Source: Chitinophagaceae bacterium (lineage in GTDB: Bacteria; Bacteroidota; Bacteroidia; Chitinophagales; Chitinophagaceae). Taken from it: a stretch of DNA of 64,000 bases. The notes beneath the pieces were generated by a model. That model did not search any database. It had not been told where the DNA came from and worked only from the letters and a program-made list of their open reading frames with translations. Positions 38,397 to 54,228 of the stretch are shown here, piece after piece. The position numbers were made by a program, and so were the translations under genes. The DNA is taken from the NCBI GenBank assembly GCA_023957155.1, contig JAMLHK010000004.1, positions 248,001 through 312,000 on the forward strand, in the 5' to 3' direction. How positions within the stretch are numbered: the first letter of the stretch is position 1; each line of letters begins with the position of its first letter.

Positions 38397-38459
38397 CCGT
38401 ATATTTTTTATTTTGATTATTTTCAACAAACAAATTTTAAGCATTCGATACAGCTTTCC

Positions 38460-38479
38460 TATCCTTAAAAAGGAGGATT
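38460..38479 (-). promoter_or_regulatory. Candidate operator O1 (operon 38396 to 31542)
   Basis: TATCCT-TAAAAAGG-AGGATT, a variant of the AATCAT-N8-ATGATT palindrome. On the minus strand a -7-like box AAAATTTG (38431-38438) follows after exactly 21 bp. Confidence 0.65.
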
Positions 38480-38493
38480 TTTTCAGGATAAAA

Positions 38494-38513
38494 AATCATT
38501 AAAAAAGAGGAGG
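38494..38513 (+). promoter_or_regulatory. Candidate operator O2 (kinase A)
   Basis: AATCAT-TAAAAAAG-AGGAGG; left arm perfect, right arm weak. A -7-like box TTCATTTG (38535-38542) lies 21 bp downstream, before the kinase gene at 38572. Confidence 0.6.
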
Positions 38514-38571
38514 GTACGGAAAGCAGATTGTATGTTCATTTGTATTATAAACAGATCACACATTGAATTAT

Positions 38572-40506
38572 ATGCGAAAACTGGCTATCCTCCTGCTGAT
38601 ATGTGCCTGGTATAGAGAAGCCGGGGCGCAGGCTCCTATGAACAAGGATAGCCTGCTGCGCCTGCTGCCTGACACCAGAGAAGATACGTCGAAAGTGTGG
38701 TTGCTGATCAATATCGGAAATCAATACGAATGGGACGACCCCGAAACCGCCGCTAAATATTACCTGGATGCCGGAGAATTAAGCGAAAAGCTGGAATACA
38801 AACAGGGAACCATAAAGTTCATCGCCAATTACTCCTACCTGCTCAATCTAAGAGGACAGTTCGACAGTTCGATGCTCCTGAACAGGCAGTCGGTTAAGCT
38901 GGCTGATGAGCTGGGCGATAAATCCCAGATAGGCCGATCCAATGCCAATCTGGGCAATGTATTCCTTAACCTCAGTCAGTACGACAGCGCGGTGTACTAT
39001 TACCAGATAGCCGTGAAAAACTTTGAAGCCATAGGCGATGAAGTGTTGGTAGCCCGGCTGGCCGATTTGCTCCAGGTTGCCTATATGGAGCTGCGCCAGC
39101 ACGATAAAGCATTGGTATATGGTGAGCGGGCCATAGCGGTGCTGCGTAATGCTAATGACCCCGCGAGTCTGAGCGCCGTCCTCTCGAATGCGGCAAACGT
39201 GTATGAACGCCTGAACCGTCATGATACGGCCCTGGCTTATCTGAAGGAAGCATTGATATTGGCCCGGGGAATTAACTATAAAGCACACGAAAAGACCATA
39301 TTGCAGAACTTAAGCAATATCTATCAGAATATGCTTCAGGTAGACAGTATAAAGCCTTATGCAGAGAAAGCTGCGATGCTAAGCCGTGAATTGGGTTTCC
39401 CGGAAAGTGAAGCCATCGCTTACCGGGGCCTGGCGAATTACTATGTGTTTAAAAATGACCTGGATGCCGCCTATAAATATATATCTCTCTCATTGGATAT
39501 AACCAAAAAAGGCGGGTTTCGGAAGGAGCATGCCTCTAGTTTGAAAACCCTGGGGGGGGTGTTACTGGCGATGCACCGGTATGAAGAATCCTACCGGGTG
39601 GATTCGGAGGCAGAGGCGCTGGCGGACAGTCTCATGGGTGAAGAAGTTCGAAACCGGACCCTGTTTTTGGAAAAACAGTTTGAAACCGAAAAAAAAGAAG
39701 CCCGGATACAACTGCAACAGGCGCAGCTCAAACAAAAAAACATACTGAATTATATCCTTATCGGGGGCGCTGCGGCATTGGGGATGATATTATTGCTCAG
39801 CTATCGCAACTACAAACACCGGCAGCGCTTGCAGCAGGCAAGAATAGATGAGCTGGAAACCGAAAAACAACTCACGGCTACCGAAGCCATACTCAAAGGC
39901 GAAGAACAGGAGCGTACCCGCTTGGCCAAAGACCTACATGACGGCCTGGGCGGTATGCTCAGCGGTATTAAATTTTCATTTCAGAATATGAAAGACAATC
40001 TCATCCTTACGCCTGATAATGCACAGGCTTTTGAACGGAGCCTCGACATGCTCGACAGCTCTATCAGGGAAATGCGCCGCGTAGCGCACAATATGATGCC
40101 CGAAATGCTCGTGAGATATGGTTTGGATGTGGCCTTAAAGGAGTTTTGCAGCGAGGTAGATCGCAGTGGCGCTGTCCATACCCGATATCAGTCTATCGGT
40201 ATGGAGCATGCCAACATCGAACAGACCACTGCCGTTACCGTATACCGCATTGTGCAGGAATTAGTGAACAATGCCATCAGGCATGCTGCTGCCAGCCAGG
40301 TGCTGGTGCAATTGCAGCTATCGGGAAAACTACTGTCCGTAACCGTGGAAGATAACGGTAAGGGCTTCGATACCGGCCTGTTGCAAAAGGCACAAGGTAT
40401 TGGCTGGAGCAATATCCGGAACCGTGTTGATTTCCTTAGAGGAAAGATAGACGTGGATTCAGCCCCGGGAAAGGGTACTTCGGTTTTGATTGAGATTGGA
40501 TTATAA
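38572..40506 (+). CDS. TPR-sensor histidine kinase A (NarL/HisKA_3 type)
   Basis: A 644-residue membrane kinase. Signal peptide (ends GAQA), then about 350 residues of TPR repeats facing the periplasm, a coiled coil (FETEKKEARIQLQQAQLKQ), one transmembrane segment (about 391-413), a second coiled coil, and the HisKA_3 dimerisation domain with the phospho-His at 456 in KDLHDGLGGMLSG. The ATPase domain has QELVNNAIRHA, EDNGKGFD and GIGWSNIRNRV. The transmitter half is nearly the same as in kinase B (54229), while the sensor halves differ widely. The cognate regulator at 41033 is separated by an inserted element. Confidence 0.93.
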   Translation: MRKLAILLLICAWYREAGAQAPMNKDSLLRLLPDTREDTSKVWLLINIGNQYEWDDPETAAKYYLDAGELSEKLEYKQGTIKFIANYSYLLNLRGQFDSSMLLNRQSVKLADELGDKSQIGRSNANLGNVFLNLSQYDSAVYYYQIAVKNFEAIGDEVLVARLADLLQVAYMELRQHDKALVYGERAIAVLRNANDPASLSAVLSNAANVYERLNRHDTALAYLKEALILARGINYKAHEKTILQNLSNIYQNMLQVDSIKPYAEKAAMLSRELGFPESEAIAYRGLANYYVFKNDLDAAYKYISLSLDITKKGGFRKEHASSLKTLGGVLLAMHRYEESYRVDSEAEALADSLMGEEVRNRTLFLEKQFETEKKEARIQLQQAQLKQKNILNYILIGGAAALGMILLLSYRNYKHRQRLQQARIDELETEKQLTATEAILKGEEQERTRLAKDLHDGLGGMLSGIKFSFQNMKDNLILTPDNAQAFERSLDMLDSSIREMRRVAHNMMPEMLVRYGLDVALKEFCSEVDRSGAVHTRYQSIGMEHANIEQTTAVTVYRIVQELVNNAIRHAAASQVLVQLQLSGKLLSVTVEDNGKGFDTGLLQKAQGIGWSNIRNRVDFLRGKIDVDSAPGKGTSVLIEIGL

Positions 40507-40518
40507 TTCATGAGATTA

Positions 40519-41019
40519 AGCCACGAAGCCACAGAGGCACGAAGAAATGATTTGTCGTTCCGGTTGTTAAAAAACAAATGAAATGAATTATGAAGTACTA
40601 TCGGCACAAGAAGAACAAATAGGTACAGCCATCGTAAATGCTGCTTTCCGCATACATAAAGAGCTTGGGCCGGGGCTGCTCGAAAAAGTTTATGAAGTAT
40701 GCATGGGCCACGAACTCAGAAAAGCAGGGTTTGGTGTAAAAAGGCAAATTGGTATCCCAATTTGCTATGATAGCATTCAATTTGACGAAGGACTAAGAAT
40801 AGACTTGTTAATAGAGGGATTTGATCATCGTGGAATTGAAATCAGTTGAAACGGTTAATCCCGTATGGGAAGCACAGATTATAAGCCATTTAAAACTAAC
40901 AGGCCTTAATCTTGGCTATCTAATCAATTTCAATGTTTCATTAATAAAAAGCGGGATAAGAAGATTTCGTAATTAATTGAGCCACGAAGAAAACTTCGTG
41001 CCTCTGCGCCTTCGTGGCT
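40519..41019. mobile_element. 501-bp inverted-repeat element carrying a GxxExxY gene
   Basis: 26-bp terminal inverted repeats: the left end 40519-40544 begins AGCCACGAAGCCACAGAGGC, and the reverse complement of the right end 40994-41019 begins AGCCACGAAGGCGCAGAGGC; the two arms match at 24 of 26 positions. Removing 40519-41019 leaves a 25-bp kinase-regulator gap, against 24 bp in the paralogous pair at 56169/56194. No target duplication or transposase is seen, so the mode of movement is unknown. Confidence 0.75.
40583..40976 (+). pseudogene. GxxExxY protein gene, frameshifted
   Basis: The first frame encodes 88 residues: MNYEVLSAQEEQIG, the family helix AIVNAAFRIHKELGPGLLEKVYE (the GxxExxY motif), and RIDLLIEGF. 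A one-base insertion near 40826-40830 moves the frame; the next frame continues as LIIVELKSVETVNPVWEAQ and LNLGYLINFNVSLIKSGIRRF, the expected C-terminus. GxxExxY proteins have a PD-(D/E)XK-like pattern (here VELK) and unknown function. The break is either a true mutation or a sequencing error. Confidence 0.85.
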
Positions 41020-41032
41020 GAACATAAAGAAG

Positions 41033-41647
41033 ATGATAACCAAACTGTTTATAGTTGACGACCATTTTATGGTGATAGAAGGCATCCGTTCATTGCTGCA
41101 AGGTGAAAAGGATATAGAATGGATGGGGCACGCTATGAATGCTTCCTCCTGTCTTGCTTTCCTGGCACACCAGGAACCGGATGTCATCCTGATGGATATC
41201 AATCTTCCCGACAAAAGTGGTATTGACCTCTGCAAAGAGGTAAAGGAATTGTATCCTGCCGTTGCCGTCCTGGGACTTAGCACCTTCAACCAGCAGCCTG
41301 TTATCCGCAATATGATGGACAGCGGCGCATCTGGCTACGTGCTGAAAAATGCCACTAAGGAAGAGTTGCTTACCGCCATTACTACCGTAAGGATGGGTAA
41401 AACCTTCCTGAGTTTTGAAGCCGTGCAGTCACTCCGCGAAACGGCCAGCGAAGCGCTCGTTATCACCCGCCGCGAGAAAGAAGTATTACAGCTTATCGCA
41501 GAAGGGCTCACCAATGCCGAGATAGCAGCGCAGCTTTTTATCAGTGTCCTCACCGTAAATACCCACCGTAAAAACCTGATCGAAAAATTTGATGCGGCTA
41601 ATACCGCTATGCTTATAGCGAAGGCTGCCAAAAGGGGGGTTTTATAG
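41033..41647 (+). CDS. NarL/LuxR-type response regulator A
   Basis: A 204-residue regulator with receiver domain (acidic pair D9-D10, phospho-Asp D55 in LMDINLPD, Lys in GYVLKNA) and a C-terminal LuxR-type HTH (about 138-200: ITRREKEVLQLIAEGLTNAEIA, then TVNTHRKNLIEKF). It is the partner of kinase A by position and is close to regulator B at 56194, with nearly identical recognition-helix regions. It is therefore expected to bind the same operators. An inserted element separates it from the kinase gene, which may have changed its expression. Confidence 0.95.
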   Translation: MITKLFIVDDHFMVIEGIRSLLQGEKDIEWMGHAMNASSCLAFLAHQEPDVILMDINLPDKSGIDLCKEVKELYPAVAVLGLSTFNQQPVIRNMMDSGASGYVLKNATKEELLTAITTVRMGKTFLSFEAVQSLRETASEALVITRREKEVLQLIAEGLTNAEIAAQLFISVLTVNTHRKNLIEKFDAANTAMLIAKAAKRGVL

Positions 41648-41750: not shown

Positions 41751-41853
41751 CCCGACTTATCCGGTTGGTAATTTTCGAAAATAGATCTATTGGCTTTCAG
41801 TTATTTATGTTGATATTTTCATAATTTGACCGCACTAAATCGGACAAGTCGGG
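41751..41853. mobile_element. 103-bp MITE-like element
   Basis: Terminal inverted repeats CCCGACTTATCCG (41751-41763) and CGGACAAGTCGGG (41841-41853), 12 of 13 matching, flank an AT-rich core without a gene. It sits exactly between the end of the duplicated regulator flank and the start of the ompA fragment. No target-site duplication is seen. Confidence 0.6.
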
Positions 41854-41998
41854 AAATTCTACCCGCTGAGTATTGGTCCGGCCTTCGGGTGTAGCATTGT
41901 CGGCGATGAGTTGGGTTTCACCGTAACCTTTGGCGGTTAAACGGCCCGCATCAATACCCAGGCTGATCAGCTGCATGCGAACATGCCTCCGCCCTTTT
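41854..41998 (-). pseudogene. Fragment of an OmpA-domain gene
   Basis: About 145 bp that align with the 3' end of the ompA-like gene at 31557-31703, covering the RAEAVRTQLTSLGID to NNQRVEF region, with substitutions and an insertion at about 41984 that breaks the frame. The last three codons are replaced by the MITE-like element. Upstream on the minus strand a start-like MKRILIWMC remains at about 42008-42037, suggesting a gene whose middle has been deleted. Confidence 0.75.
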
Positions 41999-42059: not shown

Positions 42060-44177
42060 TTATTTTCCAAACATCCCTGTACCATTTATGGAACCAGAAC
42101 CTGTATTTAAACTCATTTTCCCTTCTGCACCTGCGCTGCCACTTAAAGGGCCTACACCGGCTTCGGCCTCTACGCCACCTTTAATTACTACATCAGAAAT
42201 GCCGTTGCGGTCAATTTCAATATCTGCTCCCACACCAGCGCTTGCTTTGGCTTCAAGCGGCCCTATATTGCCGCCTACGCTTGCTTTAGGGCCAATGCTT
42301 ACTGTGCAATTTTTAAAGGAATCGCCAAAACCTGCATGATCCATATCCTGGTTTAAAGTGAGGCCTAATACACCAGCATTGAAACTTGTGGTCATGCCGC
42401 TGCAATTCATTACCATTGAAAAACCCATGCCACCAAGCCCCATATTGAACTCACTGTTGAGATTGCAATTGGGGTCTTTAAAGGCAGTAAGCTTTCCGCC
42501 TTTTATTTTGCCGGGGGCTTCACAACCATAATTTACCCCAAGCACTTCTGCTTTAAAAGACAAATCTGTTAACCATTGTTTTTTTAATCCGGCAATAATG
42601 CCCGGCAGTAATTTGGGATAGGTAGTGTATAGGGCCGAATAAGCCATTTCGTTTAGGTACTGTTTTTGTGCAATTAAATATTCATTGTATAAGTCTTCTG
42701 ATTTTGTATTGTATGCATTAAGGTAAGTATCTGCCGCTTTTACAGATTCGCTGCAAAGCGCCACGTTGTCTTCCGATCCGCCTTCACCTACATTTTTCCA
42801 CCTTTCGTTAATTTTTTTCATGGTGTTTTCATATTCCTTTTTGTATGCAGCGCCATCACCGCTTGTAAAGGCTGCCATTTTTTGCAGTATAGCATTTTTC
42901 TTCTGCTGGAGATTTTGCAATACAATGTTTTCCCTCGCATTCATTTTTTCTGAAAACATGGGTGCAGCCACTATTTGCAAAGCACTGCTTTGGCTTACCG
43001 AGCCGGGGTTGGCAATTGCTTTGTTTCTGGCTTCCATAAATTGCTTTTGCTGTTCTTCCAGTTGTTTCAGCATTTCCTTATTCGATTCTTCTGTAAGTTT
43101 TTGCAGCGGTTTTATTGCCTCATCTATATTGGTCAGGAATTGTTTCCGCTGCTCTTCGTATGCTTTCATTGCCGCATAAGATTTAGGAAATTCCATTGGA
43201 GAAAAATTGCCGAGGTTCAGCAGGTCATCACTTTTGTTATTTGGAGGGAAATTGTTGTAATCGCCTGCACCTACCGTGTAGCCCAATTGCATTAGTTTAT
43301 CTTTTCTTGATGAGGTATTTCCCTGCTTAAACGCCGCTTTGGCGCGTGCAGTGGCGGCTGTTTTATTGCCCTTGCTTTCATCAATCAGGCACCTGGTTTC
43401 GTTGGCTTGCGCATGTGTGGCATTTAAAAGCAGCGTACTGTCTATATATTTTCCCGCCTTATCCATATCGCCCAGGGCAAACCATGCCTGGCCAAGATTG
43501 TTGAGAATGGTGCTGTTCATTTTAAATCGTGCATTGAGGTTATTGAGGATAGGAATTGCCATGTCAGGCGCCCCCACCATAGTGAGCATGGCGGCATAAT
43601 TGTTCAGGTTGTCGGTATTGGCGGCATCTGCATTACAGGTCTGCGCCATCAGGCATAATGCGATCTGGCTGCGTCCCTGCATCCACAAGGCTGTAGCGGC
43701 ATTCCCTATTTTGCCTGCTGTAGCGCCTTTCCCTTTAAGCGCCATATAAATTTCACTGGCTTTGTTTTTTGCTGCCGGTAATGCTGCGCTAAAAGTGCCG
43801 TTACCTGCTGTACCGATAAATGCACTCATGCCAGCGGCGGATGGCGTAGCTGCTATGGCCGCAATTTTTTTAGTGTCTTTTGCGGGCACTCCATTTACCA
43901 GCGCTATTGCGGGGCGTTTTGGATCTTTTGCCGTAGCGGCACCGGCTACTGTCTGGTTGGCATCGTTTATTTTTTGTCCCATGCCCATTTGGTTCATCAT
44001 GCTATCGTATTGCCTTCGTGCTTCGGGACTCATTTGGGAAAGTGTTTCGTTGAGCTTTTTCTGCGCTTCGGCATACTTTTTTTTATCGGCTTCCATTTGC
44101 TCTTTGGAAGGCCTTTGGGCGAAGGCGTTTACGGAACACAGAAAAAATGCTATTAAGTAGAAATAAGACTTGAGCAT
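42060..44177 (-). CDS. Exported TPR protein B with Gly/Ser-rich C-terminal domain
   Basis: A 705-residue paralogue of TPR protein C (47053), more distantly A (36219). Signal peptide ends AFAQ. Then LSQMSPEARRQYDSMMNQMGM, the motif NGVPAKD, TPR helices with STILNNLGQAWFALGDMDKA (about 215-290), a Gln/Lys-rich coiled middle and a C-terminal domain from about 540 with several short Cys-containing strands and repeats such as GPLEAKASAGVGADI, ending GTGMFGK. The C-terminal beta pattern with alternating Gly, Ser and Ala suggests a surface or barrel-like fold; function unknown. It has its own operator at 44231. Confidence 0.75.
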   Translation of the reverse strand: MLKSYFYLIAFFLCSVNAFAQRPSKEQMEADKKKYAEAQKKLNETLSQMSPEARRQYDSMMNQMGMGQKINDANQTVAGAATAKDPKRPAIALVNGVPAKDTKKIAAIAATPSAAGMSAFIGTAGNGTFSAALPAAKNKASEIYMALKGKGATAGKIGNAATALWMQGRSQIALCLMAQTCNADAANTDNLNNYAAMLTMVGAPDMAIPILNNLNARFKMNSTILNNLGQAWFALGDMDKAGKYIDSTLLLNATHAQANETRCLIDESKGNKTAATARAKAAFKQGNTSSRKDKLMQLGYTVGAGDYNNFPPNNKSDDLLNLGNFSPMEFPKSYAAMKAYEEQRKQFLTNIDEAIKPLQKLTEESNKEMLKQLEEQQKQFMEARNKAIANPGSVSQSSALQIVAAPMFSEKMNARENIVLQNLQQKKNAILQKMAAFTSGDGAAYKKEYENTMKKINERWKNVGEGGSEDNVALCSESVKAADTYLNAYNTKSEDLYNEYLIAQKQYLNEMAYSALYTTYPKLLPGIIAGLKKQWLTDLSFKAEVLGVNYGCEAPGKIKGGKLTAFKDPNCNLNSEFNMGLGGMGFSMVMNCSGMTTSFNAGVLGLTLNQDMDHAGFGDSFKNCTVSIGPKASVGGNIGPLEAKASAGVGADIEIDRNGISDVVIKGGVEAEAGVGPLSGSAGAEGKMSLNTGSGSINGTGMFGK

Positions 44178-44230
44178 TGCTGGTAATTATAAATTGTGTG
44201 GTAAAAATAAATAATGAGGTTAGGTGGGGG

Positions 44231-44251
44231 AATCATTAAAAAATGATGATT
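44231..44251 (-). promoter_or_regulatory. Candidate operator O3 (TPR protein B)
   Basis: AATCAT and ATGATT arms with a 9-base spacer (one longer than the others). A minus-strand -7-like TATTTTTA (44202-44209) lies 21 bp away from the proximal arm. Confidence 0.65.
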
Positions 44252-44346: not shown

Positions 44347-45630
44347 TTATTCCACCCTTTTGCGCAAGGCATTAAAATCAAAATTCTTTTCAAAATTCCT
44401 GATCAGCCTTCCAGAAAAACCCCTGTCTGCGCTTATTTCGTAGCGAAACTGCACTTCCATAAAGATGGGCTTCGCTGGCTGATTGGTATTGCGATTAAAA
44501 TACTCCGGGTTGAGCACATATAGTGCCGATTTGTATTCCTCTTCTTTATCGTAAAAATTGCCTAATTCTTTTAAACGTTCATTAGCATCATAAGCATTAC
44601 CCGGGTTGCCTACTATGGCCTGCTTTTGCAGCCAGTCTTCCTTTTTGCCAGTCAATAGCTGTTTTAGCTTTTCTTTTTTTGCTGCGTATAATTTCGGGTA
44701 TGCCACTTTATCTGCTTGCAGAATATCCATTTGTTTTTTTGCATAATCAGCATTGTTTCCGGCGAGTCCTTTCATTTTACTGTTCCAGTCGTATTCAAAA
44801 TTTGCTTTTTCAATTTCAAGATAATCCAGCATATCCTGCAAATACTGTTTACGGCTAACAGGTATCAATAAGGGAATGCCCGGTTTGGTAATAAGATAAT
44901 GACGGTCTATGAATTGATACGAGTTGGGGCCATTATTACCGTATCGGTCGCCGTTCATCCAATTTTCGCTATAGCCATTGCCATTATTCAGTTTCAAAAA
45001 ATCGGTATGATAATCCTTATAGTTATTGGAACGGTTGTTTAGTAACCTTCTTTCTGAAATATATGTTGAAACATTGCTTTGTTTATTGCCAGAGCTATTA
45101 CCCTGTATGTTATCAATCGGGATTTGATATTGAATGGTGTTTGGATATTTTGAAATATTAACGTCCCCTATACCGATTTCCGATGGCGCTACATTACCGG
45201 CCAGTGTTGGGTTAATATCCACTCTTAATACAGTGCGGTATTCGTCCACTGTTTTTACTATATGCTGCGTAACGTGACATACATTTTGATAAGCAGCTAA
45301 CTGATAACTGTAACTGGTGTGATGAAAGCTACCATTGTTGCCGGTGATATTAGCGAAGCTTACCCTGGCAACACAACCCGTGAGTTGAAACTCTTTCCGG
45401 CTCGCTTCTTCTAATTTTTCAATAGCAATGAGTTGGTTGGTCATTGCTGTTTTTTCTGCTGAAGTTCCTTTGAGACTGATTGGATATTTCGGATTGGTGT
45501 GGTTGGTGTATATACCGGGAATATCATCTGCTGTACCATTACAGGGAACATTGCCCATAAGGTCTTTTTTCTGAGCAAAAGTGATTGTACTACTTAAAAA
45601 CAGCGTAATTGCCAGGATGGATTTTTTCAT
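44347..45630 (-). CDS. PGK/W-family exported protein 4
   Basis: A 427-residue distant member of the family. I start at MKKSILAITLF; two more codons-worth of upstream start is possible. Signal peptide ends FAQK. Landmarks: Cys followed by DDIPGIYTN in place of PGKW, VSRKQYLQDM, a Lys-rich helical middle, KEDWLQKQ and NPEYFNRN with PAKPIF. The middle has an Asn/Gly/Tyr-rich stretch. It ends in LRKRVE, like the protein at 45812 (VKKLAE). It forms a single-gene unit between two hairpins, with its own operator at 45699. Confidence 0.7.
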   Translation of the reverse strand: MKKSILAITLFLSSTITFAQKKDLMGNVPCNGTADDIPGIYTNHTNPKYPISLKGTSAEKTAMTNQLIAIEKLEEASRKEFQLTGCVARVSFANITGNNGSFHHTSYSYQLAAYQNVCHVTQHIVKTVDEYRTVLRVDINPTLAGNVAPSEIGIGDVNISKYPNTIQYQIPIDNIQGNSSGNKQSNVSTYISERRLLNNRSNNYKDYHTDFLKLNNGNGYSENWMNGDRYGNNGPNSYQFIDRHYLITKPGIPLLIPVSRKQYLQDMLDYLEIEKANFEYDWNSKMKGLAGNNADYAKKQMDILQADKVAYPKLYAAKKEKLKQLLTGKKEDWLQKQAIVGNPGNAYDANERLKELGNFYDKEEEYKSALYVLNPEYFNRNTNQPAKPIFMEVQFRYEISADRGFSGRLIRNFEKNFDFNALRKRVE

Positions 45631-45698
45631 TTTCGGAATCATAGATTGAATGGGTTGATTTTATCCCGATAAAAGTAATAAGATGAATCAGGTGGGGG

Positions 45699-45718
45699 TA
45701 TCGTTAAAAAAGATGATT
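45699..45718 (-). promoter_or_regulatory. Candidate operator O4 (gene at 44347)
   Basis: TATCGT-TAAAAAAG-ATGATT. The minus-strand -7-like box TACTTTTA (45670-45677) is 21 bp away. Confidence 0.7.
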
Positions 45719-45726: not shown

Positions 45727-45803
45727 GCCACAAAGGCGCTAAGACACAAAGAAGCACAAAGAAGAAACCTTAGTGAATCTTAGTGTCCTGGTGTCTTCGT
45801 GGC
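45727..45803. repeat. GCCAC-type imperfect hairpin element
   Basis: The ends GCCACAAAGGCGC and its near complement GTGTCTTCGTGGC form an imperfect inverted repeat over 77 bp without a gene. It begins 9 bp past operator O4 and ends 8 bp from the stop of the gene at 45812. It resembles the ends of the element at 40519-41019. Confidence 0.6.
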
Positions 45804-47032: not shown

Positions 47033-47052
47033 GTTACTCAATTCAAGTTTAT

Positions 47053-49113
47053 TTATTTACCAAATCCACTGATACCACCACTCATATTGCCGGAAATCAA
47101 ACTCATTTTTCCGGATGCGCCTACTTCTACATTTACAGGGCCTGTACCTGCATTTACAGAAACTTCGCCGGTTACATACACATCTTCCACACCATTGCTG
47201 GTAAATTCTACACCCATACCTGCATTTGCCGCAGCGCCTGCCTGAAGCGGGCCTGCGTTTGCGGAAATTTCTTTGCCCGCTTTGGCTTCAAGCGTTCCTT
47301 TTACGAATTTATTATTGCCTTTATCATCAAATTTGTAATTAAGGTTACCGCTTATTACACCTGCATCAAATTCTATGCTTGACCTGCCACATTCAAAAAT
47401 CATCCTGTTGGGGCCTAAGCCCAAAGAGGTTTTGAACTTGCAATTGATATCATCAAAATCGGCCAGCTTGTATTTTGAGTTTTTAGCTTCAGGAATTTTA
47501 CAATCGTTACCATATTTGTTGGTGGCAATATATCTGGTATTGCTGATGGCGCCGAGCCATTCTTTTTTAGCAGCATTTTTGGTGGATTCAAATGTGGCTT
47601 CATCCTGGGTGAATTGCTTCCAGTATAACTCTTCGGTAATTTTTAATTTAAGTTGATGCAAATAATTTTTGTAGGTATCTTCCAACAGGAGATTATAATT
47701 TTTATACACCCATTCGCTGTATTTGCGTTGTACCACACAATTATCAAAACCTATGTTTTCTCCTTTTTTAGCTAATTCGGTTTCACTTTCTGCTTTAATG
47801 CTGCTTTCTTTTTCAATGATTTTCCGTTGTGCTTCATCTTTAGCATTAAAATCTTTTCTCAAATCATCAATAGCTGCTTTTGCTTTTTTGAAACGGAAGT
47901 TCATTCCGCCATCCTTACTCATTTCTTCCAGGTTTTTTTCGGCAGTTTTCCGGTAAATATTTTCATTGACTGAAGCATTTGTTGTCATGGCGGTAACGCC
48001 GCCTTTTTGATATTGTTGATACAATCTTTCCGCTTCTTGTGCATTGGCTTTTTGCGCAGGTATCATTGCTTGTGCTAAAGCTGTCATTTTATCATAGGCC
48101 TGTTTTTGGAAAGCATCCCAATCTGCTTTCAGGCGCATTTCATCTTCATAAGACTTCGGCGCTTCCGGTCGGATAAATCTTTCCAATGCCAATGGATCAG
48201 GATCAGGGTGAAAAGGTTTGCGCATGTCACTGCTTTTTACCGAATAGCCCAGTTTGCGCAGTTTGTTTACTTTATCTAACGAATAACTATATGCAAGAGA
48301 ATTCTTCATTTTTTCAATAGCTGCAGTTTTATTTCCTTTGCTTTCCTGTATCAGGCATTGTGTATAGTTGGCTTGCGGATGATAAGCAAATGCTTTTACT
48401 GCTTTATCCAATTGAACATTCGCTTTATCGGTTTCTCCCAAATAAAACCAGGCCTGCCCCAGGTTGTTGAGAATGGTAGTATTACCGGGATATTTTTTTG
48501 AAAGATACTCCAGCAACGGAATAGCCCGGTGCGGCGCACCACCCATGCTGAGCATGGCTGCAAAATTGCTGAGCATATCATCATCTGTATTGTTATCGCT
48601 ACATGCTTTGCCCAACATATACACGGCAATTTCAGGCTGACCACTTGTCCAAAAGCCAACGCCCGCATTAGCTATTTCAGATGTGCTGTATTTATTTGCT
48701 TTTAAGCCCGAATAAAAATACTGTCCTGCCTGTTTTGATTCGTCAGGCAGGTTTTTATTAATATACTCATTGAGTGTGCCGATGTAAGCTGAAAGATTGG
48801 AAGCTGTTAAAGTGATGTTTGGAATGGCAGCAATGAGGACGGCATTTTTTGCAGGTACGCCGTCTTTGTTTACGGCGGCAGCAATTTGTGCATCAGAAGC
48901 GCCCTTAACGGATGCAGGCATTGCAGGAACTTTTGTGGACATACCCATTTGTTCCATCATTTTCCGCTGTTCCGGGGTAAGTTTATCTAATGCATCCTGC
49001 GCCTCTTTCATCCTTGCATCAATTTCTTTTTGTGTAGCAGGGTTTTTCTTTTGCGCTGATATATGTAATGCAAAAATGGTAAATGATATAAGCAGGAATA
49101 AGGGTTTTATCAT
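47053..49113 (-). CDS. Exported TPR protein C with Gly/Ser-rich C-terminal domain
   Basis: A 686-residue paralogue of TPR protein B. Signal peptide ends ISAQ; then DALDKLTPEQRKMMEQMGM, DGVPAKN, TPR repeats with TTILNNLGQAWFYLGETDKA (about 205-290), a coiled Lys/Glu-rich middle and a C-terminal beta-type domain with GPVNVEVGASGKMSL, ending GISGFGK. The three paralogues share N-terminal motif, TPR core and a terminal FGK or GGK. It lies 26 bp after the gene at 49140 and belongs to that operon. Function unknown. Confidence 0.75.
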   Translation of the reverse strand: MIKPLFLLISFTIFALHISAQKKNPATQKEIDARMKEAQDALDKLTPEQRKMMEQMGMSTKVPAMPASVKGASDAQIAAAVNKDGVPAKNAVLIAAIPNITLTASNLSAYIGTLNEYINKNLPDESKQAGQYFYSGLKANKYSTSEIANAGVGFWTSGQPEIAVYMLGKACSDNNTDDDMLSNFAAMLSMGGAPHRAIPLLEYLSKKYPGNTTILNNLGQAWFYLGETDKANVQLDKAVKAFAYHPQANYTQCLIQESKGNKTAAIEKMKNSLAYSYSLDKVNKLRKLGYSVKSSDMRKPFHPDPDPLALERFIRPEAPKSYEDEMRLKADWDAFQKQAYDKMTALAQAMIPAQKANAQEAERLYQQYQKGGVTAMTTNASVNENIYRKTAEKNLEEMSKDGGMNFRFKKAKAAIDDLRKDFNAKDEAQRKIIEKESSIKAESETELAKKGENIGFDNCVVQRKYSEWVYKNYNLLLEDTYKNYLHQLKLKITEELYWKQFTQDEATFESTKNAAKKEWLGAISNTRYIATNKYGNDCKIPEAKNSKYKLADFDDINCKFKTSLGLGPNRMIFECGRSSIEFDAGVISGNLNYKFDDKGNNKFVKGTLEAKAGKEISANAGPLQAGAAANAGMGVEFTSNGVEDVYVTGEVSVNAGTGPVNVEVGASGKMSLISGNMSGGISGFGK

Positions 49114-49139
49114 AATACTTTATTTATTCATCGTCATTT

Positions 49140-49793
49140 TTAAAAGTTAGTCCAGGCGGTGCCGCTAATGGTATTCCAGCCCGATTGGCTGCTGCTTTGG
49201 TTACCTCTCATGTCGTAATTGTAATAAATCCACCCGATTCGGTTAGCTTTCAGCTTTATTTTGCAGGTTCCGGTACTTGCATTATCGGTGCAGCTTTCCA
49301 CTTTTAAATCTTCCATTATTATTTTATTCACGACACGGTTCAGGTAACTTTCCATCTTTGTTTCTGTTACCGATATTTCCATCCTTGCGAGGGTAGGTGC
49401 TGCCGGCTGTGCAGATTGCATGGCCTTCACATCTGGCGTTGCTTTAATACCAATATCCTGTTTGATGACATTGGGGTTTGTTACAACCGGCTTATTCGCC
49501 ACGGTGGCGGTGGGCAAAGTTTTTGGCTGGCTTGCTGCATTTGAAGTATTCATCAGGTTACGAAATTCTGAAATGTAGATACCCATCGGTACTTCTATTT
49601 CAATAGTAGCCGAATTATCAGATCCGCCGGTATAGTTATTAATTATAACCTGGTATTCAAAACCTTTTGCTGTGCCGGAGCCTTTAATTCTGGAGTCATC
49701 GCTTTTTTTAAACATGCCATAAGTTGTTCTTGTCTGGGCAAAAAGGCCACTGATGGCAAATGTGGCTGTGAGTAGCAGGATTGATTTTTTCAT
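49140..49793 (-). CDS. Uncharacterised exported protein
   Basis: A 217-residue protein with signal peptide ending LFAQT. The mature part has TTYGMFKKSDDSRIKGSG, a strand-rich segment, a Pro/Thr/Ala linker with VVTNPNVIKQDIG, and a C-terminal half with one Cys pair (ESCTDNASTGTC) and a Tyr/Trp-rich end. No family recognised. It is the first gene of the operon 49793 to 45812, behind operator O5. Confidence 0.65.
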   Translation of the reverse strand: MKKSILLLTATFAISGLFAQTRTTYGMFKKSDDSRIKGSGTAKGFEYQVIINNYTGGSDNSATIEIEVPMGIYISEFRNLMNTSNAASQPKTLPTATVANKPVVTNPNVIKQDIGIKATPDVKAMQSAQPAAPTLARMEISVTETKMESYLNRVVNKIIMEDLKVESCTDNASTGTCKIKLKANRIGWIYYNYDMRGNQSSSQSGWNTISGTAWTNF

Positions 49794-49851
49794 TTTCTAT
49801 TTCTATTTTAAGGTTGATGAAGTAAAAGTAGCTGACAGAAATGGCGGCGGC

Positions 49852-49871
49852 AATCATTAAAAAAGATGATT
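49852..49871 (-). promoter_or_regulatory. Candidate operator O5 (operon 49793 to 45812)
   Basis: Perfect AATCAT-TAAAAAAG-ATGATT. Minus-strand -7-like TACTTTTA (49823-49830) at 21 bp. Confidence 0.75.
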
Positions 49872-49877: not shown

Positions 49878-49915
49878 GCCACGAAGGCGCAAAGACACGA
49901 AGAAAAAAACTTAGC
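49878..49915. repeat. GCCACGAAG-type repeat, single arm
   Basis: GCCACGAAGGCGCAAAGACA, followed by CGAAG, matches one arm of the GCCAC repeats at 40519, 45727 and elsewhere. It lies just past the stop of the gene at 49925. Confidence 0.6.
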
Positions 49916-49924: not shown

Positions 49925-50389
49925 TTAAAATCCCTTTGGTAGTATCAAGCCTGATTTTCCCGGGCTATTCTCCGCATAATAATTGCTGTCATCCCAACCG
50001 GGTTTTCCATCACGCTCTGTAGCGTTGTGATGTTGAAGTATCAGGGTGTTGGCCTTATTGGCATCTAAATATTGAATAGAAAAGGGATAGGCAACTTTCT
50101 CTAATTTCCGGGTAGATGTTTTCAATTTCTTATTCCAGGTATTATTAATGGAACGGTTGCCAACATCACTATTGCCATTGGATGTTTTACCAACCTTACT
50201 CCATTCTTCATTAGCGCCTTTTGAAGGGGAAATAGTAAGATTATCTCCATTGACGGAATAAGTGCCTGTTTCGTACTGCAATAATTTAACCTCATTAAAA
50301 TGTGATGCTGTCACATATACAAAACGATACGAGCCGTCTTTATTGAATTGATATTGCCTGGTCCGGTAGCCGCCTGTATTATACTGCAT
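49925..50389 (-). CDS. Lipocalin-like domain protein, probably split from its upstream gene
   Basis: A 154-residue frame without signal peptide. YQFNKDGSYRFVYV, ETGTYSVNGDNLTISPSKG and TERDGKPG match the C-terminal domain of the protein at 50457. Upstream of its first ATG the same frame stays open and reads SPLAGKTFEGTTLEKSG, which aligns with the domain start in that protein. So the domain begins before the ATG and the two frames were probably one gene with two lipocalin-like domains, now separated by a frameshift near 50457-50470. Confidence 0.6.
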   Translation of the reverse strand: MQYNTGGYRTRQYQFNKDGSYRFVYVTASHFNEVKLLQYETGTYSVNGDNLTISPSKGANEEWSKVGKTSNGNSDVGNRSINNTWNKKLKTSTRKLEKVAYPFSIQYLDANKANTLILQHHNATERDGKPGWDDSNYYAENSPGKSGLILPKGF

Positions 50390-50456
50390 ATTGCCTGCTC
50401 CGCTTTTTTCCAGGGTGGTGCCTTCAAAAGTTTTTCCGGCAAGAGGCGAAGCAACA

Positions 50457-51551
50457 TTATTTGATACCTGACTTGACTTGCTGCGGTTTTGAAGATGGTA
50501 ATGATGATTGATTTACAGCATTGATTTTAAAACCCGGTGGAAAATCTATCAATGCTTCTTTTCTCCATGCATAAGAATTTGTTTGGAGGCCACTGTTGTT
50601 GTTAGAAGTGCCATCTCTTTCCGTAGGCTTATCAGATGTTAAAAGCAACGCTGTACTTTGCGAACCTGAATAAGTTTTTATCTCGAAAGTGTAAGTGATT
50701 TTTTCAAGTTTTGCATCCTTCGATTTTATTAACGTCCCCCATTCATTGTTTCTGTTACTGGCAGCTTTGCTCCATTCTTCCGACCTGCCCTTTGTGGGTG
50801 AAATAGTTAATTTGTTACCGCTTACTGACCAGTTGCCTGTTTCATAAATATACAATATCGGCTTACTGTAAGCCGACCATGTTTTATGAAAAAACAAATA
50901 AGTGCCATCACTCTTAAATGTATATTCTTTCCTGAAATAACCGGCGGTATATTGCGGATAGCCGTTGGAATACCCGGAAGTTTCCAAAAGATTATTTGCC
51001 CAGATACCAACAATAGCATTGTTGTTGCCTGTGGATGCTGTTACAGATCCGGAGGCATCGGAAACACCATTCGTATCTATATCCAGCGAGGCAATCAATG
51101 ACTGATAATCTTTCAGATAAGGCTGTGCAGTAGTATTGCATAATACCGATACACAAACACTGTTGTTGGAATAAACGGTAAGAATACTTGCCACATTTGC
51201 TCCGTTGTATTGCCATACGCCGCTACCGCTCATCACTGTCCAACCTTTCGATGTCTGTGGCTTCGTTTTTTCCGGAGACGAAATGGTTTTTCCGGAAGCT
51301 ATAAGTTCGCTCCATTCTTTGTCGAAATCGGTTTGTATATTTCCTTCGCTGTTGCGATGTTGATAAATGGCAATTTGCGCCCACGAAGCGCCATCAATCC
51401 GTGAATAGGAAATATTTCCGCCACCCTGATTTTCCGCCCAGTTTTTTGGAGGCGTGTAAGAAACAATATCAAAAGTTTGCTGTTGGGAAAAGCCTGTATA
51501 ACTCATTAAAAAGATTGCATGAAGAATAAGGATTGTTTTAAGCATTTTCAT
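50457..51551 (-). CDS. Exported protein with PsbP-like and lipocalin-like domains
   Basis: A 364-residue protein, signal peptide ending GFSQQ. The N-terminal half (about 25-160, with YTPPKNWAENQGGG and DYQSLIASLDID) resembles the small domain in the protein at 51588. The C-terminal half (about 185-345) is a lipocalin-like domain: IVGIWANNLLETSG, TFKSDGTYLFF, ETGNWSVSGNKLTISPTKG and TERDG. A second, broken copy of that domain follows at 49925. Ligand unknown. It lies 36 bp after the gene at 51588 and shares its operator. Confidence 0.7.
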   Translation of the reverse strand: MKMLKTILILHAIFLMSYTGFSQQQTFDIVSYTPPKNWAENQGGGNISYSRIDGASWAQIAIYQHRNSEGNIQTDFDKEWSELIASGKTISSPEKTKPQTSKGWTVMSGSGVWQYNGANVASILTVYSNNSVCVSVLCNTTAQPYLKDYQSLIASLDIDTNGVSDASGSVTASTGNNNAIVGIWANNLLETSGYSNGYPQYTAGYFRKEYTFKSDGTYLFFHKTWSAYSKPILYIYETGNWSVSGNKLTISPTKGRSEEWSKAASNRNNEWGTLIKSKDAKLEKITYTFEIKTYSGSQSTALLLTSDKPTERDGTSNNNSGLQTNSYAWRKEALIDFPPGFKINAVNQSSLPSSKPQQVKSGIK

Positions 51552-51587
51552 TGTGGTGAATTTGATGAAGTTGTATGGTAAACTTAT

Positions 51588-52235
51588 TTACATCACTGGC
51601 GCTGGTGCGGCAGGTGTAGCAGGAGGTCTTTTTTTCGCATTTGCAGTCCCCGTTTCGTTTAGATCCATTCTTAACGTGGTCATAAACTGGTTGAACTCGT
51701 CAATACAATCGTTGTTGCTGGTGAGCAGTTGGTAGTACAGGGTTTGGCTGCCATTGCTTAATGAATAGAAATAGCTGTTCACCGTAACCATGTTTTGTGT
51801 GGTTGTGCCTTTTGAAAAGAAAGATATTAATCCATCGGCTTCATATTTAATAATGGCACCTCTTTGGTTTTGATATGTAATGCCGGTGCCGCCATTTCTT
51901 GTTCGGTATGCCATATATTCGTTCGGTGTTGTAATTGCACCTTTTTCAGTAGCCGAAATAATAATTTTGCAGGTAACTCCTTTTTTGGGAGCCTTAACAA
52001 GCGTTACGGTTTCGGTTGTTTTGACCATTTGCCATCCTGCAGGAACGGTAAAGGTTGCTTTTCCAAAGGATTCATCAACCGTTGGTGTAGACGCTGCTGT
52101 TTGCTGTTTATTACCCGGAGTAACTTTAAGTTCCTGCGTGACTGGGTTTGACCCGGAGTTTGATTTTGTGAGTTGTGCCTGAGCTATGCCCATTATGCAC
52201 ACACCTAAAATAAAGGGGATGGTTCTTTTCATCAT
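51588..52235 (-). CDS. Uncharacterised exported protein (PsbP-like domain)
   Basis: About 215 residues, started at MMKRTIPFIL, with a signal peptide ending GIAQAQ. After a Ser/Thr/Gln-rich linker comes a domain (about 60-190) with FTVPAGWQMVKTTE and a repeated strand pattern ending FNQFMTTLRMD. The same pattern is seen in the N-terminal half of the protein at 50457. The tail is Pro/Ala-rich. No function assigned. First gene of its operon, behind operator O6. Confidence 0.65.
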   Translation of the reverse strand: MMKRTIPFILGVCIMGIAQAQLTKSNSGSNPVTQELKVTPGNKQQTAASTPTVDESFGKATFTVPAGWQMVKTTETVTLVKAPKKGVTCKIIISATEKGAITTPNEYMAYRTRNGGTGITYQNQRGAIIKYEADGLISFFSKGTTTQNMVTVNSYFYSLSNGSQTLYYQLLTSNNDCIDEFNQFMTTLRMDLNETGTANAKKRPPATPAAPAPVM

Positions 52236-52281
52236 GTAAAAATTTTGTGATGTAAAACTAATTGGAGTGGCCAGGTAGAGC

Positions 52282-52301
52282 AATCATTAAAAAGGATGAT
52301 T
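52282..52301 (-). promoter_or_regulatory. Candidate operator O6 (operon 52235 to 49925)
   Basis: Perfect arms, AATCAT-TAAAAAGG-ATGATT. Minus-strand -7-like TAGTTTTA (52253-52260) at 21 bp. Confidence 0.75.
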
Positions 52302-52319: not shown

Positions 52320-52799
52320 TTATTGCGCGAGTATATCCACCTGCGCAACAATTTCATTTTCCGGGTTTTCTTTATCGTAAAAGCGAACATACAAATGATA
52401 GCTCTCTCCCGCTGTCATAGGATCACCGGCATTAAGTGTGGCTTTTAATTCGGTAGCCTGAGAGGCATCTGATCCTGCCTGTCCTGCAAAAGCATCGGGA
52501 AGGTTCAACAGCTCATTTTTATTTTTATCGGTAAGAACAATAGTACAACCGGGATAAGCCTTTTGCTCTTTTAACCGGTAATTTCTTACCCCTGCTGCTA
52601 CCAGCTTTACCGGTATACCCAGTGTTACCTTATTGCTGCCCAGCCTGCGGCCATCGCCATCCGTTAAATAAATATCATCTACCGTAAAACCATTGTAGGT
52701 AGCAGATAAGCCGGTATTTAGATCTTTCTTAACGCCCTTGCTGAAATGGCAGGCGCTGAGAGTGGAAAGGAAAATGATAAGGGTGAAGATATGTTTCAT
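52320..52799 (-). CDS. Uncharacterised lipoprotein
   Basis: A 159-residue lipoprotein with lipobox TLSAC (Cys17). The mature part is beta-rich with VDDIYLTDGDGRRLGSN and a C-terminal segment SYHLYVRFYDKENPENE that looks like a small immunoglobulin-like domain. It is the third gene of the operon that starts with the DUF4870 gene at 54022, 24 bp after the M48 gene. It may work with that protease, but this is only from position. Confidence 0.65.
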   Translation of the reverse strand: MKHIFTLIIFLSTLSACHFSKGVKKDLNTGLSATYNGFTVDDIYLTDGDGRRLGSNKVTLGIPVKLVAAGVRNYRLKEQKAYPGCTIVLTDKNKNELLNLPDAFAGQAGSDASQATELKATLNAGDPMTAGESYHLYVRFYDKENPENEIVAQVDILAQ

Positions 52800-52823
52800 A
52801 CATGAGTTTTTGAAAGTGATGAT

Positions 52824-53633
52824 TTAATTGTTGTGGTAATATTTCTCTTTTATTTCAGGTATTAATGCAGATAGTTTTTTGATCCTCGTTTCATCGCTGG
52901 GGTGGGTGGATAAGAACTCGGGTACTTTATTTTTATTCATAGCTGCCATGCGTTGCCAAAAGGGAATAGCCTCCGCCGGATCATACCCGGCCATGGCCGC
53001 AAATATCAGCCCCAGCTTATCGGCTTCACTCTCCTGCATACGGCTGTTGGGCAGTGAAAAGGCAAGGTTGGCGCCTACCATGTATAAGCCGAGGAACAAA
53101 GCCTGGGTTTCCTGCTTTTTTTCTTTCAGCGCTTCCTGCAAAATCAGCCCTCCAAAATTAACAACCAACCCCTCACTCATACGTTCATTGCCATGCCGAG
53201 CTATGGCATGTGTAATTTCGTGACCCAACACTACTGCCAGTGCGTTCTCATTTTGTGTGACAGGCAACAACCCTGTATATACCACAACTTTGCCGCCCGG
53301 CATGCACCAGGCATTAATGGTAGTTTCGTTAATGGTGTTGTATTCCCATGCAAAATTTTTCAGGTCTTTGCTCATATTGTTTTGCTGCATATAATTTTCT
53401 ACAGCCTGCTGAATTTTGCGGCCGACCCTCGTTACCATTTGCGCCCGCTCATCGGTTTGTGAAAGGGTGGCGCTGTATCTTACCACCGAATCATATTCGG
53501 TGAGCGCCATTGCGGTTATCATGGCATCGGGCACTAAGTTCAGTTGCTTTCTCCCGGTAACGGGTACGGTTTTACACGATGCAGCCAGCAGAACCGCCAC
53601 AATCGTTAAAGAGAAAAAAAATGCTTTTTTCAT
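52824..53633 (-). CDS. M48 family metalloprotease lipoprotein (LoiP/BepA-like)
   Basis: A 269-residue protein started at MKKAFFFSL. The signal is of the lipoprotein type, with LLAASCKTVPVTGRKQL; this TGR-(K/R)Q-L block is conserved in M48 envelope proteases. The zinc motif HEITHAIARHGNERMSE is at about residue 150, and the third ligand Glu is in RMQESEADKLGL. Such enzymes degrade or assist outer-membrane proteins. It is part of the regulated cluster (operon behind operator O7), which supports an envelope-stress role for the regulon. Confidence 0.92.
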   Translation of the reverse strand: MKKAFFFSLTIVAVLLAASCKTVPVTGRKQLNLVPDAMITAMALTEYDSVVRYSATLSQTDERAQMVTRVGRKIQQAVENYMQQNNMSKDLKNFAWEYNTINETTINAWCMPGGKVVVYTGLLPVTQNENALAVVLGHEITHAIARHGNERMSEGLVVNFGGLILQEALKEKKQETQALFLGLYMVGANLAFSLPNSRMQESEADKLGLIFAAMAGYDPAEAIPFWQRMAAMNKNKVPEFLSTHPSDETRIKKLSALIPEIKEKYYHNN

Positions 53634-53650
53634 AAATAATACAAGCTGAT

Positions 53651-54022
53651 TTAACCCAGTTTTGAAAAAACCTTTTGCGCCTTTTCCCCGATAAGAGGAA
53701 TCGGTTTTTCTTCCCCGTTTATAGCGGCAATCAGGCCGATAATCCATAACACCAGCAGTGCTATATTCAGCCCCATAGAAAGGATTGTTATCAGCCAGCC
53801 GATATAAGGAACAAACAAAAACATGCTCTGAATAACATATACTCCCAGGGAAATGATCATAAGCAATAATGTTTGCCGAAGGTGGTAAATGGCAAATGCT
53901 GATTTATTGTTGCCATACATTACATAAGCTATTATCCATCCTATCGGAGTAAGATAGCTGATGATAGCAATGTTTTTACTTTCGCCGGTATTGGCCTGTT
54001 GAGGGTTGTTAGTGATGCTCAT
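53651..54022 (-). CDS. DUF4870/Tic20-like small membrane protein
   Basis: A 123-residue membrane protein started at MSITNNPQQ. Three to four hydrophobic segments, with the family features NIAIISYLTPIGWIIAYVMYG and AIYHLRQTLLLMII (the His/Arg/Gln motif), and a short basic tail. The family function is unknown. It heads the operon with the M48 protease and a lipoprotein, behind operator O7. Confidence 0.85.
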   Translation of the reverse strand: MSITNNPQQANTGESKNIAIISYLTPIGWIIAYVMYGNNKSAFAIYHLRQTLLLMIISLGVYVIQSMFLFVPYIGWLITILSMGLNIALLVLWIIGLIAAINGEEKPIPLIGEKAQKVFSKLG

Positions 54023-54123
54023 TAAATATTTTTTAAAAGGTGGTTGATGCAACTTCCAGCAAACGGGAAGTAGTTGTTTTGATAATTACCGGAGTAAAAG
54101 TATATTTAGAACTGAATGCGGGC

Positions 54124-54143
54124 AATCATAAAAAAACATGATT
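54124..54143 (-). promoter_or_regulatory. Candidate operator O7 (operon 54022 to 52320)
   Basis: Arms AATCAT and ATGATT, perfect, with 8-base spacer AAAAAAAC. Minus-strand -7-like TACTTTTA (54095-54102) at 21 bp. Confidence 0.75.
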
Positions 54144-54164
54144 TTTCAGGATTGATTGCCAAAA

Positions 54165-54184
54165 AATCATTAAAAAGGATGATG
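54165..54184 (+). promoter_or_regulatory. Candidate operator O8 (kinase B)
   Basis: AATCAT-TAAAAAGG-ATGATG, right arm five of six. A plus-strand -7-like TTTATTTG (54206-54213) is 21 bp away, before the kinase gene at 54229. Confidence 0.7.
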
Positions 54185-54228
54185 GATAAAGTAGTTATTA
54201 CTGCTTTTATTTGCAATAACTTTCGAAC

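What the first reader, a model, noticed from the sequence alone, without database searches (positions are those of the whole stretch)
38431..54213. Eight palindromic operators at a fixed 21-bp distance from a promoter box define a regulon
Sites at 38460, 38494, 44231, 45699, 49852, 52282, 54124 and 54165 share AATCAT-N8-ATGATT (spacer mostly TAAAAAAG or TAAAAAGG; one site has 9). Each lies exactly 21 bp from a -7-like TAnnTTTA or TnnnTTTG box, on whichever strand the downstream gene lies. Together they stand before every transcription unit between 31542 and 56808, including both histidine kinases. A fixed spacing of two helical turns with the palindrome at the -33 region is what an activator replacing the -33 contact would give. 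The best candidate binder is the pair of near-identical LuxR-type regulators in the cluster. I know of no description of this operator.
Basis: partly seen in the sequence, partly recalled or inferred. Interest (0 to 1): 0.92.

Follow-up and report, generated by a model that had tools for sequence, protein, structure and literature searches.

The report
Operator sites locked to promoter boxes
In this bacterium a pair of sensor-and-regulator systems probably switches on its own genes and a set of secreted proteins through a short mirrored DNA site that sits about two helix turns upstream of the promoter box, and the same arrangement recurs in related bacteria that carry the same kind of regulator.

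Summary
All eight sites exist, each exactly 21 bp from a TTTR-type -7 box, though only 3 of 8 match AATCAT-N8-ATGATT perfectly and a fourth has the same arms with a 9-bp spacer. The real motif includes the A-tract core. In related loci, operators chosen without looking at the box have it at 21 bp in 60 of 107 (T-core reading) and 25 of 113 (A-core reading) cases; every other offset has 0-6. The spacer letters are not conserved. In 147 genomes of the family the strict target composite (up to 1 mismatch) occurs in 17, and all 17 have a LuxR-type response regulator with Asn in the recognition helix (19 genomes have one); none of the other 128 has it. Nine of 48 sites lie far from the regulator gene. 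Relatives with Asp there have another operator at the same distance. Taking the -7 box as -12 to -5 (PMC9723704), the dyad is centred near -43.5. Best reading: autoregulated class-II-like activation by two paralogous TPR-kinase/LuxR-regulator pairs of a paralogue-rich set of secreted proteins. Binding and activation are inferred. The literature searches made listed no description.

The parts
38460..38479 (-). operator for the 36219-31542 gene run (AATCCTCCTTTTTAAGGATA read on the minus strand); -7-like box AAAATTTG at 38431-38438
   Evidence: 3 mismatches to the composite pattern; 21 bp spacing
38494..38513 (+). operator for histidine kinase A (AATCATTAAAAAAGAGGAGG); box TTCATTTG at 38535-38542
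44231..44251 (-). operator with 9-bp spacer for the TPR protein gene 42060-44177; box TATTTTTA at 44202-44209
45699..45718 (-). operator (AATCATCTTTTTTAACGATA) for gene 44347-45642; box TACTTTTA at 45670-45677
49852..49871 (-). perfect operator for genes 49140-49793, 47053-49113, 45812-47041; box TACTTTTA at 49823-49830
52282..52301 (-). perfect operator for genes 51588-52235, 50457-51551, 49925-50389; box TAGTTTTA at 52253-52260
54124..54143 (-). operator with perfect arms for genes 53651-54022 (DUF4870-like), 52824-53747 (M48 peptidase), 52320-52799; box TACTTTTA at 54095-54102
54165..54184 (+). operator for histidine kinase B (AATCATTAAAAAGGATGATG); box TTTATTTG at 54206-54213
38563..40506 (+). 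histidine kinase A: signal peptide by eye, TPR repeats, HisKA_3, HATPase_c
41033..41647 (+). LuxR/NarL-type response regulator A (receiver + GerE; recognition helix SVLTVNTHRKNLI)
54229..56169 (+). histidine kinase B, 44% identical to kinase A
56194..56808 (+). LuxR/NarL-type response regulator B, 74% identical to A (recognition helix SIPTVNTHRKSLL)
31542..38444 (-). predicted target run: TPR protein 36219-38444, three paralogues (32913, 34007, 35107), OmpA-domain protein 31542-32849
42060..44177 (-). predicted target: paralogue of the TPR proteins 47053 and 36219 (no Pfam hit of its own)
44347..45642 (-). predicted target: protein of a family without Pfam match, paralogue of 45812
45812..49793 (-). 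predicted target run: 49140, 47053 (TPR protein), 45812
49925..52235 (-). predicted target run: 51588, 50457 and 49925 (two weak lipocalin-like proteins)
52320..54022 (-). predicted target run: DUF4870-like membrane protein, M48 peptidase, 52320

Best explanation
The eight sites are binding sites for dimers of the two paralogous LuxR/NarL-type response regulators encoded in the cluster. Each membrane sensor kinase (extracytoplasmic TPR domain, HisKA_3 core) would phosphorylate its regulator, which dimerises on the 20-bp dyad AATCATTAAAAARRATGATT. The dyad lies at about -53 to -34, centred near -43.5, so the bound dimer would touch RNA polymerase at the edge of the -33 region and activate a promoter whose -7 box is off consensus (TTnnTTTG for the kinases, TAnTTTTA for the targets). 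The kinase genes carry the site too, so the circuit is autoregulated, and both systems would feed one shared, local set of secreted or envelope proteins. Shown: sites, fixed distance, conservation, co-occurrence with the regulator subclass, unlinked sites in relatives. Inferred: binding, phosphorylation, sign of control, transcript starts, membrane topology, function of the targets.
For: Sites and distance 8 of 8. Own genome: composite hits at up to 1 mismatch (8-bp spacer) only in this locus. Relatives (window, L036-L058, L146-L219): operators picked without the box have TnnnTTTR at 21 bp in 60 of 107 (T-core) and 25 of 113 (A-core) readings, every other offset 0-6. Spacer letters are at background (mean pairwise identity 0.285 and 0.279 against 0.265 and 0.262 expected), so distance, not ancestry of sequence, is kept. 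The site occurs in both orientations relative to the promoter at the same distance, as a two-fold symmetric dimer would allow. Co-occurrence: target composite at up to 1 mismatch in 17 of 147 genomes, all 17 among the 19 with an Asn-helix regulator, 0 of the other 128, Fisher 2e-20; the other two have a 2-mismatch site (G036) or a kinase-type site (G123). Places found at up to 2 mismatches: 62, reversed control pattern: 6. In five genera (g3, g4, g8, g9, g34) one sampled member has both and another has neither. Nine of 48 sites lie on another large contig or over 1 Mb from the regulator gene. A second subclass (Asp helix) has its own operator AATCATGGAAAAAGGGGAGD at the same distance: exact in 10 genomes, all 10 with an Asp-helix regulator. 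The neighbouring LysR gene does not track the site.
Against: No transcript starts, binding or expression data. Regulator and most sites travel in one locus (30 of 48 within 30 kb, 9 more on short contigs), so part of the co-occurrence is linkage. The kinase-type composite at up to 1 mismatch is less clean: 17 genomes, of which 12 have an Asn-class regulator and 5 do not (G027, G053, G055, G078, G120, each 1 mismatch; the 9 genomes with exact matches all do). At 2 mismatches the target composite also hits three genomes without the regulator. The helix residue changes only about twice on the tree, so the 51-of-54 association of helix and operator letters is not independent evidence, and L166 (Asn helix, but HRKN) has a partly Asp-like operator. 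Of 112 distinct kinase upstreams, 50 had no operator by the common score, among them L102 (Asn helix, 41% identity). Nine E- or D-class upstreams have an operator but no box at 14-29 bp. The palindrome arms alone are not enriched in the window. Regulator A has no obvious promoter of its own.
Confidence: 0.77

Rival explanations
1. The regulators bind the sites but repress: the dimer blocks RNA polymerase at the -33 region.
For: The operator overlaps or abuts the -33 region; NarL-family regulators can repress (recalled).
Against: A rigid 20-21 bp distance in dozens of promoters is not needed for occlusion; both promoter classes have -7 boxes one base off TAnnTTTG, as one would expect of activator-dependent promoters (inference).
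Confidence: 0.1
2. Another protein (an unlinked transcription factor or an alternative sigma factor) recognises the site.
For: No binding data; an unlinked factor cannot be excluded by neighbourhood.
Against: The site tracks one regulator subclass in 147 genomes, other subclasses have other operators at the same distance, and the neighbouring LysR gene does not track it: at E <= 1e-60 it is in 101 of 147 genomes but not in G040, G130 and G142 (the last 60% complete), which have the site. A 20-bp dyad found in both orientations does not look like a sigma -35 element.
Confidence: 0.09
3. The hairpins are RNA elements such as terminators or attenuators.
For: Several sites lie within 100 bp downstream of a stop codon and contain a T-run.
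Against: Four of eight sites lie in divergent intergenic regions (38460/38494, 54124/54165); the stems are A+T rich; the site is upstream of a -7 box at fixed distance.
Confidence: 0.02
4. The sites are passive relics of promoter duplication along with duplicated genes.
For: Targets are paralogous families; the two divergent regions look alike by eye.
Against: Spacers are at background identity while operator and distance are kept, in front of unrelated genes and at unlinked places, in 17 genomes of 13 genera.
Confidence: 0.02

Closest known systems
NarL/FixJ (LuxR-type) response regulators, e.g. VraR, DesR, NarL
   Same: Receiver plus GerE domain; best PDB relatives VraR, DesR, NarL; dimeric regulators of palindromic sites (recalled)
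   Different: Operator is a 20-bp dyad with an A-tract core; the helix residue after TV is Asn, where VraR has Lys (alignment) and NarL Lys188 (recalled)
Class II activation, e.g. LuxR at the 20-bp lux box centred at -42.5 (recalled)
   Same: 20-bp dyad centred near -43.5 at a fixed distance from the promoter box
   Different: Two-component regulator without an acyl-homoserine-lactone domain; Bacteroidota -7 promoter; several target runs plus the kinases
Bacteroidota primary-sigma promoters (TAnnTTTG at -7, TTTG near -33; passage of PMC7366714)
   Same: TTTG or TTTA box of the right shape
   Different: Kinase boxes mostly TTnnTTTG, target boxes mostly TAnTTTTA; the -33 region is at the operator edge
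Hybrid two-component systems of Bacteroides (PMC11253607, search listing only)
   Same: Sensor kinase thought to control neighbouring genes
   Different: Here kinase and regulator are separate proteins and the regulator is LuxR-type

Membership tests
NarL/FixJ response regulators | N-terminal receiver domain | tested here: met
   PF00072 E 3.9e-24 and 2e-26
NarL/FixJ response regulators | C-terminal GerE/LuxR helix-turn-helix | tested here: met
   PF00196 E 3.1e-18 and 1e-16
NarL/FixJ response regulators | Cognate HisKA_3 kinase in the operon | tested here: met
   HisKA_3 and HATPase_c in both kinases; regulator B directly follows kinase B, regulator A is separated from kinase A by an inserted gene
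NarL/FixJ response regulators | Binds the named operator as a phosphorylated dimer | not testable with these tools
   Only co-occurrence and co-variation
Class II activator-dependent promoter | Dyad centred near -41 to -44 at fixed distance from the core promoter | tested here: inconclusive
   Fixed 20-21 bp distance; centre -43.5 only if the -7 box is at -12 to -5; no mapped starts here
Class II activator-dependent promoter | Activation through contact with RNA polymerase | not testable with these tools
   no expression data
LuxR/AHL quorum-sensing regulator | Autoinducer-binding domain | tested here: not met
   Regulators have a receiver domain in its place and no such Pfam hit at E <= 0.001
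Bacteroidota primary-sigma promoter | TAnnTTTG -7 box | tested here: inconclusive
   Target boxes TACTTTTA, TATTTTTA or TAGTTTTA in 52 of 69; A-core boxes TTnnTTTG in 22 of 27; each one base off consensus
Bacteroides hybrid two-component system | Kinase and regulator in one polypeptide | tested here: not met

The most novel reading that the evidence does not exclude
Across the Bacteroidota, the large family of TPR-kinase/LuxR-type regulator pairs uses one rigid promoter layout (20-bp dyad, 20-21 bp, -7 box), and the operator letters can be read from the recognition helix (Asn: AATCATTA..., Asp: AATCATGG...GGGGAG, Glu: AATCCCGG...GGGGTT), so that regulons of many uncharacterised systems can be predicted from sequence.
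Probability: 0.35. Interest if true: 0.65.

Novelty: new member of a known kind. Interest (0 to 1): 0.52.

Why it matters
If right, it gives a defined operator, a regulator and a regulon for TPR-kinase/LuxR-regulator two-component systems found in 48 of 147 sampled genomes of this family at E <= 1e-60 ([quoted passage not shown] The Asn/Asp/Glu classes offer a start for reading operators from regulator sequence, and the regulon groups several secreted protein families of unknown function, one of them without a significant PDB fold match, as parts of one response.

Tried and rejected
Palindrome arms alone as evidence: rejected, not enriched in the window, and the short operator string at up to 1 mismatch is found in 136 of 147 genomes. 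One search used a 9-base spacer by my mistake; one search replaced it (one search did show the 44231 site). Terminator, LysR-binding and relic readings: see rivals. LysR's T-N11-A (recalled) does not fit the dyad by inspection. Function of targets: Pfam gave TPR, OmpA, M48, lipocalin-like (one above, one below cut-off) and a sub-cut-off DUF4870 hit; NCBIfam gave no hit above its cut-offs for 10 proteins scanned. The predicted fold of the 45812 protein (pLDDT 81) had 0 PDB matches at E <= 0.001. The 47053 model (pLDDT 71, pTM 0.48) gave 44 matches at E <= 0.001; the 50 best listed look to be TPR structures. Literature: the listings of searches (search 50 found nothing) showed no paper on this operator by title and start of abstract; passages of PMC7366714 and PMC9723704 were read, all other papers were seen as listings only; 8 of 62 rows were dropped before counting (L058, helix not read; L165, L183, L185, L190, L192, L197, L205, doubtful operator call or alignment); the tree has only about two helix changes, so no independent test was possible there. 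Of 65 regulator hits, two are the window's own and 60 of the other 63 were fetched; G076:C327, G122:C124 and G145:C197 were left out. In one search the helix of four fetched hits (L194, L198, L200, L201) was not read, so among the 128 'other' genomes G113 and G134 (unread), G076 and G145 (not fetched) have a regulator hit of unknown class and G122 one such hit besides an Asp-class one.
Full report
What was checked. The eight sites were read directly. Each lies 21 bp from a box ending in TTTA or TTTG, on the strand of the gene that follows: minus strand for 38460, 44231, 45699, 49852, 52282 and 54124, plus strand for 38494 and 54165. Three of eight match AATCAT-N8-ATGATT exactly and a fourth has the same arms with N9. 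The arms alone give 12 matches at up to two mismatches in the window against 6.84 expected, so they prove little. With core and box included, four target-type and two kinase-type sites match fitted patterns perfectly against 0.02 and 0.05 expected at up to three mismatches. In the window's own genome (4.6 Mb in 26 contigs, 88% complete) the composite with 8-bp spacer and at most one mismatch is found only here (4 hits; at up to three mismatches 28 places against 12 for the reversed control, so most weaker hits may be chance). The 9-bp-spacer pattern has this locus's 44231 site at 0 mismatches and one 1-mismatch hit elsewhere.

Related loci. A scan of one genome per species with regulator B gave 350 relatives, of which the best 80 loci were kept. 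The 23 with at least 50% identity (L036-L058) carry 44 sites within two mismatches of the 18-mer ATCATTAAAAANRATGAT in 440 kb, where 20 permuted patterns average 0.65; the 57 others (47% or less) carry 3 in 1.05 Mb. After adding loci from 147 genomes of the family, operators chosen without the box show TnnnTTTR at 21 bp in 60 of 107 T-core readings and 25 of 113 A-core readings, with 2 and 6 at 20 bp and 0 to 4 at every other offset from 8 to 36. The two readings overlap, since a site can read both ways, and identical stretches were counted once. Among 112 distinct kinase upstream regions, 62 had an operator chosen without the box and 47 of these 62 have a box at 20 or 21 bp; 50 of 112 had no operator by that score.

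Two promoter classes. Target-type promoters (T-core, n = 69) read AAAATCATCTTTTTTAAYGATTG-N20-TAYTTTTA. Kinase-type promoters (A-core, n = 27) read AAAATCATTAAAAARGAKGAK-N21-TTnnTTTG. The spacer has background identity (0.285 and 0.279 against 0.265 and 0.262 expected from composition), so what is conserved is the operator, the distance and the box. The A-tract lies on one strand for kinase promoters and on the other for targets, yet the distance is the same, as a symmetric dimer allows. The promoter-near half-site is the more degenerate in both classes, within what the search pattern allowed. The -7 box of a flavobacterium spans -12 to -5 (passage of PMC9723704). On that scale the operator spans about -53 to -34 with its centre near -43.5. 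The lux box at -42.5 is a comparable class II position (recalled).

Who binds. In 147 genomes the target composite at up to one mismatch gives 48 sites in 17 genomes of 13 genera. All 17 belong to the 19 genomes with a regulator whose recognition helix carries Asn (TVN, or TAN in G036); none of the other 128 has it (Fisher 2e-20). Four of those 128 have a regulator hit whose helix was not read or not fetched. At two mismatches three genomes without such a regulator also match (G063, G135, G009); in all, 62 places against 6 for the reversed control. The two Asn-class genomes without a strict target site have a two-mismatch site (G036) or a kinase-type site (G123). The kinase-type composite at up to one mismatch is in 17 genomes, 12 with an Asn-class regulator and 5 without; its exact form is in 9 genomes, all Asn-class. 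In five genera one sampled member has both regulator and target site and another neither. Of the 48 sites, 30 lie within 30 kb of the regulator gene, 9 on short contigs, and 9 on another large contig or over 1 Mb away, so linkage explains much but not all. Of these 9, four precede runs with homologues of the window's TPR or lipocalin-like genes, two precede other secreted-looking proteins, and for three my simple reading found no gene run.

Other regulator classes. Asp-helix regulators have AATCATGGAAAAAGGGGAGD at the same distance: exact in 10 genomes, all 10 among the 31 with an Asp-helix regulator; at up to two mismatches 29 genomes match, several without one, so that level is noisy. Chitinophaga and Flavihumibacter regulators with Glu have AATCCCGGAAAACAGGGGTT, but only 3 of the 8 kinase upstreams with it have a box at 21 bp. 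Helix Asn against the operator letters at position 7 and at 15-16 agrees in 51 and 50 of 54 rows, but the helix changes only about twice on the tree, L166 is an intermediate case, and L102 has an Asn helix without a found operator, so this is consistent with recognition, not proof of it. The neighbouring LysR gene occurs in 101 of 147 genomes and not, at that cut-off, in three genomes that have the site.

The regulon. Eight operators match eight runs of genes: two kinases (B together with regulator B) and six runs of proteins that mostly begin, by eye, with signal peptides. Three TPR-type proteins are paralogues, as are 32913/34007/35107 and 44347/45812 (with a weak link between the two groups), and the two lipocalin-like genes. 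Their function is unknown. The 45812 protein has a fairly confident predicted fold without a significant PDB match.

Mechanism and novelty. The best reading is autoregulated activation by two paralogous two-component systems that share one operator. Binding, phosphorylation, sign of control and transcript starts are inferred. The kind of system is known (NarL-type regulator, class-II-like site); the operator, its rigid layout on Bacteroidota promoters and the helix classes were not seen in the listings of the literature searches made, which cover open-licence papers only.

Noticed in passing
window 40507-41032: A PD-(D/E)XK (PDDEXK_3) gene in two frames (40583-40849 and 40821-40976, so apparently broken) sits between kinase A and regulator A, bounded by inverted copies of a dispersed GCCACGAAG...CACGAAG repeat.
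   Followed up: partly
window 45727-45751, 45779-45803, 49878-49902; L040 upstream of its kinase: The same dispersed repeat lies next to two of the operators; 5 copies in the window at up to 3 mismatches against 0.01 expected, and similar sequence by eye in L040.
   Followed up: no
window 41797-41976 (-): A 59-aa remnant resembling by eye the C-terminal end of the OmpA-domain gene 31542-32849 (no Pfam hit) lies downstream of TPR-type gene 42060, suggesting a decayed duplicate of the 36219-31542 run.
   Followed up: no
L214 (G102:C1:373000-387000): A TPR kinase gene (648 aa, 54% identical to kinase A) with a perfect kinase-type operator, but the genome's only regulator hit at E <= 1e-60 is on another contig; one target-type site faces away from it and a second lies about 4 kb further on.
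   Followed up: partly
L079, L084-L087, L089, L090, L093, L103, L105 kinase upstream regions: More distant TPR-kinase/LuxR pairs have other short palindromes upstream by eye (for example TACCTG...CAGGTA and TACCCGTATTCGGGTA) that may be their operators.
   Followed up: no
own genome G000: C2:64851, C4:106428, C23:285068, C23:285822, C23:286125: A separate repeated palindrome AATCATTAGGATAGATGATC occurs at five places.
   Followed up: no
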